This document shows, piece by piece, positions 3,805 through 46,171 of a stretch of DNA of 46,171 nt; positions within the stretch are counted from its first letter, which is position 1; each line of letters begins with the position of its first letter. Made by a program: the position numbers and the translations under genes. Location of the stretch: NCBI GenBank assembly GCA_016873775.1, contig VGWC01000012.1, forward strand, positions 1 to 46,171, in the 5' to 3' direction. The DNA is from Ignavibacteria bacterium. Lineage in GTDB: Bacteria; Bacteroidota; Ignavibacteria; UBA10030; F1-140-MAGs086. The notes under the pieces are model-generated. The model made no database searches and had not been told where the DNA came from. It saw nothing but the letters and a program-made list of their open reading frames with translations.

Positions 3805-4668
3805 ATGACCGGATCAAAATTATATTCTAACGGCGAACTTCAATCCCTCGATAGATATTTACAAGAAATAGGGAAAGTCGAATTAATCGGGGCAGAAGAT
3901 GAAATTGAACTCGCGAAACGAATTAAAAAAGGTGGCTCCGATGGTCAAAATGCACTTGAAAAACTATGCAAAGCAAACTTACGATTTGTTGTAAGTGTTG
4001 CGAAACAATATCAAAACCAGGGGCTTGCACTTGGAGATTTAATCAACGAAGGAAATCTGGGATTAATCAAAGCCGCAAAACGTTTTGACGAAACGCGCGG
4101 TTTTAAGTTCATTTCATACGCTGTTTGGTGGATACGTCAATCCATATTGCAGGCGCTTGCAGAACAATCACGCATTGTTCGTTTGCCCTTAAATCGTGTA
4201 GGCGCATTGAATAAAATCGGGAAAGCATTCAGCGCATTGGAGCAAGAATATGAACGCGAGCCGAGCGCGAGTGAAATTGCAAACGAACTCGAAATGTCGT
4301 TATATGAAGTTGCAGATACTCTGAAAATTTCCGGGCGCCACTTATCAATGGATGCTCCTTTTTCTCAAGGAGATGATAATCGTTTACTGGACGTTATTCA
4401 AGATGACCGCGCCCCACGCCCCGACCATATTTTGATCAAAGAATCGTTGAGCAAAGAAATCGAACAATCGTTGCTTTCACTGACTGATAGAGAGGCGGAA
4501 GTGTTGCGTTTATATTTCGGTTTGGGACGCGAACATCCACTCACGTTGGAAGAAATCGGCGATAAATTTAAATTGACGCGTGAACGTGTTCGTCAGATTA
4601 AAGAGAAAGCAATTCGTCGTTTACGTCATACTAATCGCAGTAAAACATTGCGGACATATCTTGGCTAA
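3805..4668 (+). CDS. rpoD: Primary sigma factor, RpoD/SigA type without region 1.1
   Basis: Sigma-70 family factor of 287 residues that directs RNA polymerase to housekeeping promoters. Region 1.2 is at the start ([15 protein letters not shown]), followed by region 2 with [20 protein letters not shown] and the melting/-10 helix [13 protein letters not shown], and region 3 around [16 protein letters not shown]. Region 4 contains [16 protein letters not shown] and the helix-turn-helix [20 protein letters not shown]. The long acidic region 1.1 is absent, as is usual for the main sigma factor of Bacteroidota and Chlorobiota. An in-frame GTG at 3721 would add 28 residues that do not look like the family and lies inside a hairpin, so ATG 3805 is preferred. 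It has only an A-rich upstream stretch and no clear Shine-Dalgarno site. Confidence 0.9.
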
Positions 4669-4710
4669 ATTGTTGCAAATGCGAATTCTCGCTTCGATGT
4701 AATTTTATAT

Positions 4711-7150: not shown

Positions 7151-7223
7151 GCTGGCGTAGCTCAGTTGGTAGAGCAGCTGACTTGTAATCAGCAGGTCAC
7201 CAGTTCAAGTCTGGTCGCCAGCT
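7151..7223 (+). tRNA. tRNA-Thr (TGT)
   Basis: The acceptor stem GCTGGCG pairs with CGCCAGC. The anticodon loop CTTGTAA gives anticodon TGT, and the T loop is TTCAAGT. CCA is not encoded. It is the first gene of the tRNA run that leads into rpmG, secE and nusG. Confidence 0.95.
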
Positions 7224-7232
7224 CTAAGTTTT

Positions 7233-7316
7233 GGGTAGGTAGCAAAGCGGTCAAATGCAACAGACTGTAAATCTGTCGACCATGCGTCTTCGAAGGTTCG
7301 ATTCCTTCCCTGCCCA
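7233..7316 (+). tRNA. tRNA-Tyr (GTA)
   Basis: The acceptor GGGTAGG pairs with CCTGCCC. The anticodon stem-loop CAGACTGTAAATCTG gives GTA. The long variable arm (around 7276-7293) is the class II form expected of bacterial tRNA-Tyr. CCA is not encoded. Confidence 0.95.
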
Positions 7317-7376
7317 CGTTAAAAAAAAGAATTATTTTTCATAAAAATGAGAAGTGAATTTTGAAAAGGAAAGAAT

Positions 7377-7449
7377 GCGGGAGTAACTCAGTTGGTAGAG
7401 TCACAGCCTTCCAAGCTGTTGGTCGCGGGTCCGAGTCCCGTCTCCCGCT
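7377..7449 (+). tRNA. tRNA-Gly (TCC)
   Basis: The acceptor GCGGGAG pairs with CTCCCGC. The anticodon arm CAGCCTTCCAAGCTG gives TCC. D and T arms are regular and CCA is not encoded. Confidence 0.95.
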
Positions 7450-7473
7450 CATAATAAAATGAGCAACAACTTT

Positions 7474-7546
<73 letters not shown>

Positions 7547-7614
7547 CATACAAATTATTTTTTTACACAAAAAAATTCATTCAAAAAAATAACTGAATTT
7601 TTTTTCAAAATGAT

Positions 7615-7764
7615 ATGCGCGAAATAATAACATTAGAATGTACGCAATGCAAGCGTCGCAATTATACAAACACCAAAAATAAGCGAAAACAATCGGGAAG
7701 AGTTGAATACAAGAAGTATTGTCAATGGTGTGATAAACGCGTTTTGCATAAAGAAACAAAATAA
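7615..7764 (+). CDS. rpmG: 50S ribosomal protein L33 (zinc form)
   Basis: Small ribosomal protein of 49 residues between tRNA-Thr and tRNA-Trp. The start [17 protein letters not shown] and the end [15 protein letters not shown] are typical of L33. Cys9/Cys12 and Cys36/Cys39 form the two CxxC pairs of the zinc-binding form. The position just before tRNA-Trp and secE is common in bacteria. The ATG at 7615 is chosen because the protein then begins as family members do. Confidence 0.93.
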
Positions 7765-7779
7765 TATAAAAGTTTGGAT

Positions 7780-7855
7780 ACGTCAGTGGCTCAATTGGTA
7801 GAGCAGCGGTCTCCAAAACCGCAGGTTGGGGGTTCGAGTCCCTCCTGACGTGCCA
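7780..7855 (+). tRNA. tRNA-Trp (CCA)
   Basis: The acceptor ACGTCAG pairs with CTGACGT, with discriminator G at 7852. The anticodon arm GCGGTCTCCAAAACCGC gives CCA. Bases 7853-7855 encode the terminal CCA, unlike the other tRNAs in the window. secE follows after about 20 bases. Confidence 0.95.
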
Positions 7856-31533: not shown

Positions 31534-31604
31534 TGCCGAGTCGTCTAATGGCAGGACACCGGCCTTTGGAGCCGTTTGTGGAGGTTCGAATCCTCCCTCG
31601 GCAG
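31534..31604 (+). tRNA. tRNA-Gln (TTG) inside the spc operon
   Basis: The acceptor TGCCGAG pairs with CTCGGCA. The D arm is GTCT...GGAC, the anticodon loop CTTTGGA gives TTG, and the T arm is GGAGG-TTCGAAT-CCTCC. The U1-A72 pair and G73 are identity elements for glutaminyl-tRNA synthetase. The anticodon stem has one C-T mismatch at its outer pair. CCA is not fully encoded. It lies between rplR and rpsE on the same strand, so it must be cut out of the ribosomal-protein transcript or have its own promoter. Confidence 0.9.
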
Positions 31605-44425: not shown

Positions 44426-45844
44426 ATGGTAATTACTCGAAAAATAGAATTGTGGATTGCAGAAGAAGATAAAACCAAGAGAAATGAAACCTGGGATTTT
44501 CTTCGCATGCTTGATAAAGAAATCTTCCGTGCGGCAAACGTTGTTGTGAACAATCAATACTTCAATGATTTTTATGAAGAGCGAATAATCCAGCAAGATG
44601 AAAAAATCGGTGATGTAAGTAAAAAAATACGCTTGCTATATTCTAAACTTCGCAAAGCTAACGATGAAGAACAGCAATCTCTCCAAAACGAAATTGAGAT
44701 ATTGAAAGAACAAAAGAAAGAATCACAAACGCGTGTTCGTTCCGAGTTTTACAAAACAAGCAAACAAAACACAACATACCAGATTCTTACAAAACAATTT
44801 CCTGAAATTCCCTCTGATATTTTAACGTGTCTTAACAATCAAATTTATAGTGTCATTGGAAAAGAGAAGAAAGAAGTTTTGCAAGGGAAACGTTCTATTC
44901 GTTCGTACAGAAAAGGAATGCCGATTCCGTTTCGTTTTGCACAACATCCACGATTAGAATTTTTTGAAAACGAATATTACTTACGTTGGCTGAATAACAT
45001 TTCGTTCGTTCTTCGCTTTGGACGCGACAAAAGCAACAATAGAGCAATTCTCGAAAAAATTTTTTCCAAAGAATACAAACTGTGCGATTCTTCGATACAG
45101 ATTGACGACAGAAAAATTTTTTTGCTACTCGTTGTTGATATTCCGAAAAGCGAACACAACCTGAACAAAGAACTTTCCGTCGGCGTGGATTTAGGATTGA
45201 ACGTTCCTGCGTATTGCGCATTGTCCGAAGGATTTGCGCGGCTCGCCATTGGACACAAAGATGATTTTGTGCGTGTGCGGCAACAAATGCAACGACGAAG
45301 AAAAGCGTTACAAAAATCGCTCGTGCTTACTTCGGGAGGAAAAGGAAGAACAAGGAAGTTGAAAGCACTTGATGCTTTGGGAGAAAAAGAACGGCATTTT
45401 GTGCGAACGTATAATCACACCGTAGCAAAACGCATTGTCGAGTTTGCAGAAAAGTATAATGCCGGAGTAATTACAATGGAACTTCTCGAAGGATATGGCA
45501 AAGACGAAAACGGAAAATCGCGTAAAGGAGATTTTGTGTTGCGCAACTGGTCGTATTTTGAATTGCAAACATTACTCAAAGACAAAGCGGGAAGAAAAGG
45601 AATGGACGTTGTATTTATTGACCCGTACCATACAAGCCAAACGTGCGCTCTGTGCGGACATTACGAAATCGGACAACGCGAAACACAAGCAAATTTTATT
45701 TGTAAAAATCCCGTATGCAAAAACTTTGACGAAAAAGTAAACGCAGATTACAATGCTGCGCTGAACATAGCACGGAGCAAAAAATTTGTAGCAAAAAAAG
45801 AAGAATGTGAATATTTCAAACTTCATAAAGAAACTCGTTCTTGA
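44426..45844 (+). CDS. cas12f: Cas12f-type miniature CRISPR nuclease (type V-F)
   Basis: RNA-guided DNA nuclease of 472 residues, in the size range of Cas12f1 proteins (about 400-700). The RuvC triad is intact: Asp255 in VGVDLGLNVPAYCAL, Glu352 in VITMELLEGYG and Asp441 in NADYNAALNIAR. The target-nucleic-acid-binding zinc ribbon between RuvC II and III has Cys407/Cys410 and Cys426/Cys431. The N-terminal half (WED/REC-like) includes GKRSIRSYRKGMPIPF (154-169) and IFSKEYKLCDSSIQIDDRK (212-230), both with close counterparts at the same places in AsCas12f1. Residues 55-108 form a charged predicted coiled coil. GAGGTGAT precedes the ATG. A tracrRNA candidate and a CRISPR array follow on the same strand, which argues against a plain TnpB transposon protein. 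No adaptation genes are in view. Family assignment is by remembered sequence pattern. Confidence 0.85.
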   Translation: MVITRKIELWIAEEDKTKRNETWDFLRMLDKEIFRAANVVVNNQYFNDFYEERIIQQDEKIGDVSKKIRLLYSKLRKANDEEQQSLQNEIEILKEQKKESQTRVRSEFYKTSKQNTTYQILTKQFPEIPSDILTCLNNQIYSVIGKEKKEVLQGKRSIRSYRKGMPIPFRFAQHPRLEFFENEYYLRWLNNISFVLRFGRDKSNNRAILEKIFSKEYKLCDSSIQIDDRKIFLLLVVDIPKSEHNLNKELSVGVDLGLNVPAYCALSEGFARLAIGHKDDFVRVRQQMQRRRKALQKSLVLTSGGKGRTRKLKALDALGEKERHFVRTYNHTVAKRIVEFAEKYNAGVITMELLEGYGKDENGKSRKGDFVLRNWSYFELQTLLKDKAGRKGMDVVFIDPYHTSQTCALCGHYEIGQRETQANFICKNPVCKNFDEKVNADYNAALNIARSKKFVAKKEECEYFKLHKETRS

Positions 45845-45858: not shown

Positions 45859-45884
45859 CGCGCAAAATTTTTTAAATAATAAAT

Positions 45885-46042
45885 TTTCTATCCTTAAAAA
45901 TCAGGATAGCGGCACGGGTGGTTTCAGATTGTCGCCGATATGACATTCACACAAGCGTTTGTAAACAGTTGTGTCATCCGAAGTGTGAGAGAAGAAATTC
46001 TACTCATCAATTCCAAACAAATAACATTTTGTGAGCATTTTT
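45885..46042 (+). ncRNA. Candidate tracrRNA of the Cas12f system (ends approximate)
   Basis: Noncoding stretch between cas12f and the array with four ordered elements. First, a hairpin CTATCCT (45888-45894)/AGGATAG (45903-45909). Second, a stem GCGGC (45909-45913)/GTCGC (45931-45935) whose loop holds GTTTCA (45921-45926), complementary to TGAAAC at the 3' end of the repeat. Third, a longer stem ATGACA (45940-45945)/TGTCAT (45972-45977). Fourth, the anti-repeat TTCC (46011-46014) plus CAAATAAC (46018-46025), complementary to repeat positions 25-28 and 14-21. TTTTT at 46038-46042 could end the RNA. This order (loop for a pseudoknot, stem, anti-repeat) is the one known for Cas12f1 tracrRNA. AACTTCC at 46061-46067 also matches the repeat's complement and is an alternative anti-repeat piece. 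Folding was done by eye. Confidence 0.7.
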
Positions 46043-46094
46043 CTTGATGAAAACGTGTGGAACTTCCAGACTGTATTGGATATAGAGAAAATAG

Positions 46095-46171
46095 GTTGTA
46101 AGCAACAGTTATTTGCTAGGAAGTTGAAACAGATTTCTAAACAATCTCCTTGAAGTATCGTTGTAAGCAAC
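46095..46171 (+). CRISPR. Start of a CRISPR array (repeat, spacer, partial repeat)
   Basis: The first repeat is 46095-46130, 36 bases, starting GTTGTAAGCAAC and ending AGGAAGTTGAAAC. A 29-base spacer follows (46131-46159). The sequence GTTGTAAGCAAC then returns exactly at 46160-46171, where the window ends. Repeat length, spacing of 65 bases and the GAAAC end fit a type V array, with crRNA read in the same direction as cas12f. Only one complete repeat is visible, so the repeat's 3' boundary rests on its typical ending and on the pairing with the tracrRNA candidate. Confidence 0.8.

What the first reader, a model, noticed from the sequence alone, without database searches (positions are those of the whole stretch)
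45885..46130. tracrRNA candidate with two separate pairings to the repeat, as in Cas12f1 guides
CAAATAAC (46018-46025) pairs with repeat positions 14-21 and TTCC (46011-46014) with positions 25-28. Independently, GTTTCA in a hairpin loop (45921-45926) pairs with TGAAAC at the repeat end. In the Un1Cas12f1 guide, the loop of an upstream tracrRNA hairpin also pairs with the crRNA next to the spacer. Finding both elements in the same order with unrelated sequence supports a true, diverged Cas12f guide.
Basis: partly seen in the sequence, partly recalled or inferred. Interest (0 to 1): 0.8.

Follow-up and report, generated by a model that had tools for sequence, protein, structure and literature searches.

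The report
Diverged Cas12f guide RNA, two crRNA pairings
The DNA between a small CRISPR nuclease gene (Cas12f) and its CRISPR array encodes the nuclease's helper RNA, which grips the guide RNA at two separate places exactly as in known Cas12f systems; it is a sound new example with one unusual extra RNA insert, not a new kind of system.

Summary
Window 44426-45844 encodes a 472-aa Cas12f with intact RuvC D/E/D residues. The contig ends inside its CRISPR array (one full 36-nt repeat, one 29-nt spacer, 12 nt of the next repeat). The intergenic region encodes the tracrRNA. In the window alone the two pairings are weak evidence (both by chance: about 0.9% of shuffles), but relatives make the case. 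A hairpin chosen without looking at the repeat carries a loop complementary to the last six bases of that locus's own repeat. Nineteen repeat-end classes give a summed match of 89 against 53.7 +/- 4.0 when permuted (0 of 100,000). The second anti-repeat passes a similar swap test (0 of 20,000). A covariance model built without the window finds 45913-46030 (33.4 bits).

One correction: the likely conserved stem is CGGGTG 45915-45920 / CATCCG 45975-45980, not a hairpin starting near 45909. It holds GTTTCA as its first six loop bases, followed by a 48-nt structured insert where most relatives have none. The published Un1Cas12f1 structure has the same Stem 3 loop (AR:R 1) and 3' AR:R 2. New member of a known kind; the loop insert is a modest variation.

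The parts
44426..45844 (+). cas12f gene, 472 aa, RuvC D255/E352/D441 and zinc-ribbon cysteines C407/C410/C426/C431 present
   Evidence: PADLOC Cas12f PDLC01699 E 3.9e-111; best solved relatives 9nzo/9nzr, Cas12f effector, E 1.5e-102; residues aligned
45885..46030 (+). predicted tracrRNA (ends not measured)
   Evidence: covariance model R1 built without the window matches 45913-46030, 33.4 bits; position between cas12f and array as in relatives
45888..45909 (+). 7-bp hairpin CTATCCT/AGGATAG, in the place of Stem 2
   Evidence: unconstrained co-fold; not tested by covariation
45915..45920 (+). Stem 3, 5' arm CGGGTG
   Evidence: homologous stem in relatives, 100% of cells paired with 5 of 6 pairs changed on both sides; aligned in the window; minimum-energy fold
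45921..45926 (+). AR1: GTTTCA, first six loop bases of Stem 3, pairs with the last six repeat bases
   Evidence: same register in relatives; permutation 0 of 100,000
45927..45974 (+). 48-nt insert in the Stem 3 loop, predicted as two hairpins
   Evidence: fold; most relatives have none, but L031, L038/L048 and L044/L092 have 3'-side loop inserts
45975..45980 (+). Stem 3, 3' arm CATCCG
45985..46007 (+). Stem 4: GTGAG(AGAA-GAAA-TTCT)A-CTCAT with the bulged A conserved before CTC
   Evidence: TGAG/CTCA core in relatives; fold
46011..46025 (+). AR2: TTCC and CAAATAAC, pairing with repeat 25-28 and 14-21
   Evidence: swap test 0 of 20,000; co-fold pairs 46018-46025 with 14-21 and 46008-46014 with 25-32
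46095..46130 (+). first CRISPR repeat GTTGTAAGCAACAGTTATTTGCTAGGAAGTTGAAAC
   Evidence: first 12 bases recur 65 nt downstream; 65-67-nt periods are usual in relatives
46131..46159 (+). spacer, 29 nt
   Evidence: no exact match in viral contigs
46160..46171 (+). start of the second repeat, cut by the contig end
   Evidence: window is the whole contig G000:C12

Best explanation
45885-46030 encodes the tracrRNA of a type V-F Cas12f effector. Transcribed in the same direction as cas12f and the array, it folds into a Stem 2-like hairpin, Stem 3 (45915-45920/45975-45980) and Stem 4 (45985-46007). It binds the crRNA twice: its 3' end (TTCC...CAAATAAC) pairs with the middle of the repeat (AR:R 2), and the first six loop bases of Stem 3 (GTTTCA) pair with the last six repeat bases next to the spacer (AR:R 1), a pseudoknot that positions the guide. 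A Cas12f dimer holding this RNA then finds and cuts DNA matching the spacer. The conserved pairings are shown by comparison; transcription, processing, complex formation and cleavage are inferred from the family. The 48-nt loop insert probably forms an extra arm beside AR:R 1.
For: Effector identity; catalytic residues. Gene-tracrRNA-array order in relatives. Hairpin chosen blind to the repeat has a loop matching its own repeat end (sum 89 versus 53.7 +/- 4.0, 0 of 100,000). Fixed register: 93 of 114 cells paired over 19 distinct loop/end combinations versus 67.0 +/- 3.9 (0 of 50,000). AR2 swap test: -496 versus -357 +/- 15.6 (0 of 20,000), window pair rank 2 of 29 both ways. Stem 3 and Stem 4 covariation: 99.6% of cells paired, 36 double-change cells versus 10.3 +/- 2.3, slid controls 27-54% paired. 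Model without the window: 33.4 bits at 45913-46030 with filters off, and the only hit in the whole window with default filters, E 0.005. Unconstrained fold leaves exactly 45921-45926 unpaired between helices. Binding of own repeat -13.0 versus -4.7 +/- 2.2 for shuffled repeats (2 of 500) and 0 of 53 other repeats as strong. Same layout in the Un1Cas12f1 structure (PMC8053092).
Against: No RNA data. No close relative (best identity about 46%), so the window's own insert and AR2 have no covariation of their own. Default-filter search gave only E 0.005 and missed the upper stem; the whole-genome search with the model returned nothing. No clear sigma-70 promoter. Only one complete repeat is assembled. 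Some relatives pair poorly at AR1 (L113, L103, L105, L088). The stems in relatives were chosen for good pairing, which favours. The co-fold extends AR2 into repeat 29-32, overlapping two bases of R1. The swap tests treat clusters as independent, which related sequences are not fully.
Confidence: 0.94

Rival explanations
1. Same tracrRNA, but the loop is presented by the upstream hairpin CGGCAC 45910-45915 / GTCGCCG 45931-45937 (implied by the reader's limit 45909), with the 45941-45977 hairpin separate.
For: A fair local hairpin; fold with it enforced is only 1.8 kcal/mol worse.
Against: It lacks the position relative to GAAG-TGAG seen in the relatives; the model aligns CGGGTG/CATCCG, which keeps the G-U at the fourth pair common in relatives. 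The unconstrained fold prefers it too.
Confidence: 0.08
2. The region is a chance set of short complements between an AT-rich spacer and the repeat; the real tracrRNA is elsewhere or absent.
For: Each match alone is not rare (6.6-15.8% of shuffles), and a further unrelated 7-base match exists.
Against: Both matches lie at the places fixed by relatives; model match 33.4 bits; swap and permutation tests.
Confidence: 0.02
3. The system is TnpB-like, an omegaRNA of a transposon-type nuclease rather than a CRISPR guide.
For: NCBIfam calls the protein a guided_TnpB (173 bits) and the nearest kin L005/L007 lack an array in the fetched flank and carry a fused guide-like RNA.
Against: Cas12f profile scores 370 bits; a repeat-spacer-repeat start with the usual 65-nt period is present; closest solved chains are Cas12f effectors (PMC13186708).
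Confidence: 0.03

Closest known systems
Un1Cas12f1 (Cas14a1) guide RNA (PMC8053092)
   Same: Order Stem 2, Stem 3 with six-base loop forming AR:R 1 with the crRNA, Stem 4, 3' AR:R 2
   Different: Here the Stem 3 loop carries a further 48 nt; Stem 4 is short (GAAA-capped)
Al3Cas12f (9nzo/9nzr assigned to it by inference; PMC13186708) and Bacteroidales Cas12f relatives
   Same: 43% identical effector; tracrRNA between gene and array; in the fetched Bacteroidales loci loop GTTGGA pairs with repeat end TCCAAC in most cases
   Different: Repeat end TGAAAC instead of TCCAAC; loop insert
Cas12f of Saprospiraceae L029 and viral contig L087
   Same: Identical pairing letters GTTTCA/TGAAAC and the same hairpin place
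   Different: Plain six-base loop; 38-39% protein identity
Cas12f of Phycisphaerae L038/L048
   Same: Insert on the 3' side of AR1 in the Stem 3 loop
   Different: Insert shorter and unrelated; loop/end GTTGTG/CACAAC

Membership tests
Type V-F Cas12f effector | Cas12f protein profile match over the whole length | tested here: met
   PADLOC PDLC01699 370 bits, residues 1-458; PDB Cas12f hits
Type V-F Cas12f effector | Intact RuvC D/E/D and zinc ribbon | tested here: met
   D255, E352, D441, C407, C410, C426, C431
Type V-F Cas12f effector | Adjacent CRISPR array | tested here: met
   one repeat, one spacer and 12 nt of the next repeat, then contig end; number of units not determinable
Cas12f1-type tracrRNA | AR:R 2, 3' anti-repeat to the middle of the repeat | tested here: met
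Cas12f1-type tracrRNA | AR:R 1, Stem 3 loop to the repeat end beside the spacer | tested here: met
   layout from PMC8053092
Cas12f1-type tracrRNA | Stem 3 loop of exactly six bases (usual, not defining) | tested here: not met
   loop is 54 nt (6 + 48); AR1 occupies the first six; other relatives also have inserts. A usual rather than a defining feature, so membership is not affected.
Cas12f1-type tracrRNA | Transcribed, bound by the effector, needed for cleavage | not testable with these tools
   needs RNA sequencing and biochemistry
Type V-F CRISPR-Cas locus | Adaptation genes (often absent, not defining) | tested here: not met
   no Cas1 (PF01867) in the 97.7% complete genome; cas2 not searched. 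Absence is not disqualifying.

The most novel reading that the evidence does not exclude
The 48-nt two-hairpin insert in the AR1 loop is a functional module, for example an added protein contact or a switch that gates AR:R 1 pairing; comparable loop inserts arose several times in Cas12f tracrRNAs, always 3' of AR1.
Probability: 0.2. Interest if true: 0.45.

Novelty: new member of a known kind. Interest (0 to 1): 0.3.

Why it matters
It gives a diverged small Cas12f with a defined guide RNA, and a comparative rule that can be reused: in this family the Stem 3 loop mirrors the last six bases of the repeat, so tracrRNAs and repeat orientation can be predicted from sequence. The recurrent loop inserts show where the guide tolerates extra RNA, which is relevant to guide engineering.

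Tried and rejected
Search for other copies of the repeat or the continuation of the array in the own genome: none. Protospacer for the single spacer in viral contigs: none exact. Relatives in 99 kin genomes: no Cas12f at E 1e-30. Close-relative scan of viral contigs with the single protein: none; with an alignment: 37. Rfam: only tRNAs in the window. 30-nt similarity of 45862-45891 to another contig: lies inside an ORF, AT-rich, taken as chance. Promoter scan: uninformative. Fold of the isolated 250 nt: z only -1.68, so stability alone is no evidence. Literature search for the Un1 scaffold letters: none held; the structural description was found instead.

Full report
What is there. Its last gene, at 44426-45844, encodes a 472-aa protein that matches Cas12f profiles over its whole length (PADLOC 370 bits) and the solved Cas12f chains 9nzo/9nzr at E 1.5e-102, with the RuvC D/E/D and zinc-ribbon residues present. 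A 36-nt repeat follows at 46095-46130, then a 29-nt spacer and 12 nt of the next repeat, where the contig ends. The repeat occurs nowhere else in the assembly, Cas1 was not found, and 99 kin genomes lack the gene at E 1e-30.

The observation. Every stated pairing is real at the stated place. In the window alone the evidence is modest: shuffles give an 8-base complement in 6.6%, GTTTCA in 15.8%, and both in 0.9%.

Relatives decide it. An alignment-based scan gave 80 loci from genomes and 37 from viral contigs; many carry an array shortly downstream of the gene. In the intergenic parts I picked, without using the repeat, the best hairpin just before an NGAG...CTC motif. In most loci its loop is the complement of the end of that locus's own repeat: GTTGGA/TCCAAC in most Bacteroidales, GTTTCA/TGAAAC in L029, L087 and the window, TCTCA/TGAGA in L006, GTTGTA/TACAAC in L096, GTTTGA/TCAAAC in L050, GTTGTG/CACAAC in L038 and L048, and others. 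Over 19 repeat-end clusters the summed match is 89 against 53.7 +/- 4.0 when loops and repeats are permuted, never reached in 100,000 trials. In a fixed register 93 of 114 cells pair over 19 distinct loop/end combinations, against 67.0 +/- 3.9. The second pairing, to the middle of the repeat, passes a swap test as well. Stem 3 and Stem 4 covary: 99.6% of cells paired, 36 double changes against 10.3 expected, and slid partners fall to 27-54%.

The window fits without having been used. A covariance model built from 21 relatives aligns 45913-46030 at 33.4 bits with filters off. With default filters over the whole window the same place is the only hit, but truncated and weak (E 0.005), probably because of the long loop. 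The alignment gives Stem 3 as CGGGTG 45915-45920 with CATCCG 45975-45980, keeping the G-U at the fourth pair that is common in relatives. The first six loop bases are GTTTCA, in the same register as in relatives. The unconstrained fold and the co-fold with the repeat both give this stem, leave exactly those six bases free, and the co-fold forms the AR2 duplex.

What is unusual. Between GTTTCA and the 3' arm lie 48 nt, predicted as two hairpins. Most relatives have a plain six-base loop, but L031, L038/L048 and L044/L092 also carry inserts, always 3' of the pairing bases. On a protein tree the insert label needs four changes, three of them forced by well-supported branches, so inserts are probably recurrent.

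How it works. By the published Un1Cas12f1 structure, the Stem 3 loop pairs with the crRNA repeat (AR:R 1) and positions the guide, Stem 4 sits between the two Cas12f copies, and the 3' end forms AR:R 2 (PMC8053092). Two-duplex pairing of this sort is known from Cas12b, Cas12f1, Cas12g and Cas12l (PMC11246509). The Al3Cas12f work took its tracrRNAs from the same intergenic place (PMC13186708). The window is a new, diverged member. What is shown: sequence pairings, their conservation, protein family. What is inferred: transcription, processing, dimer binding, DNA cleavage, and any role of the insert.

Noticed in passing
L005:4429-4499 and L007:4430-4502: The nearest Cas12f relatives (Cytophagales, 45-46% identity, RuvC residues intact) show no CRISPR array in the fetched flank; the complement TAGAAC of their Stem 3 loop GTTCTA lies about 65 nt downstream in the same intergenic RNA, as in a natural single guide. 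Neighbouring ORFs look plasmid- or mobilisation-related by eye.
   Followed up: partly
L036:2616-2687, 4088-4168, 4277-4346, 4419-4499, 4613-4686: Five stand-alone copies of the tracrRNA core around one Cas12f-like gene in a Neomarinimicrobiota genome, without a recognisable array.
   Followed up: no
L009, L109, L085, L113: Cas12f relatives beside arrays with short GC-rich repeats resembling type I-E repeats; in L009 and L109 the Stem 3 loop still matches the repeat end (GGCCCA/TGGGTC, GGTCC/GGACC).
   Followed up: partly
L085:2681-2754 and 4272-4345: Near-identical tracrRNA cores on both sides of one Cas12f gene.
   Followed up: no
window 7151-7852: Cluster of five tRNA genes, with a sixth at 31534-31604 overlapping the start of a listed ORF.
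   Followed up: no
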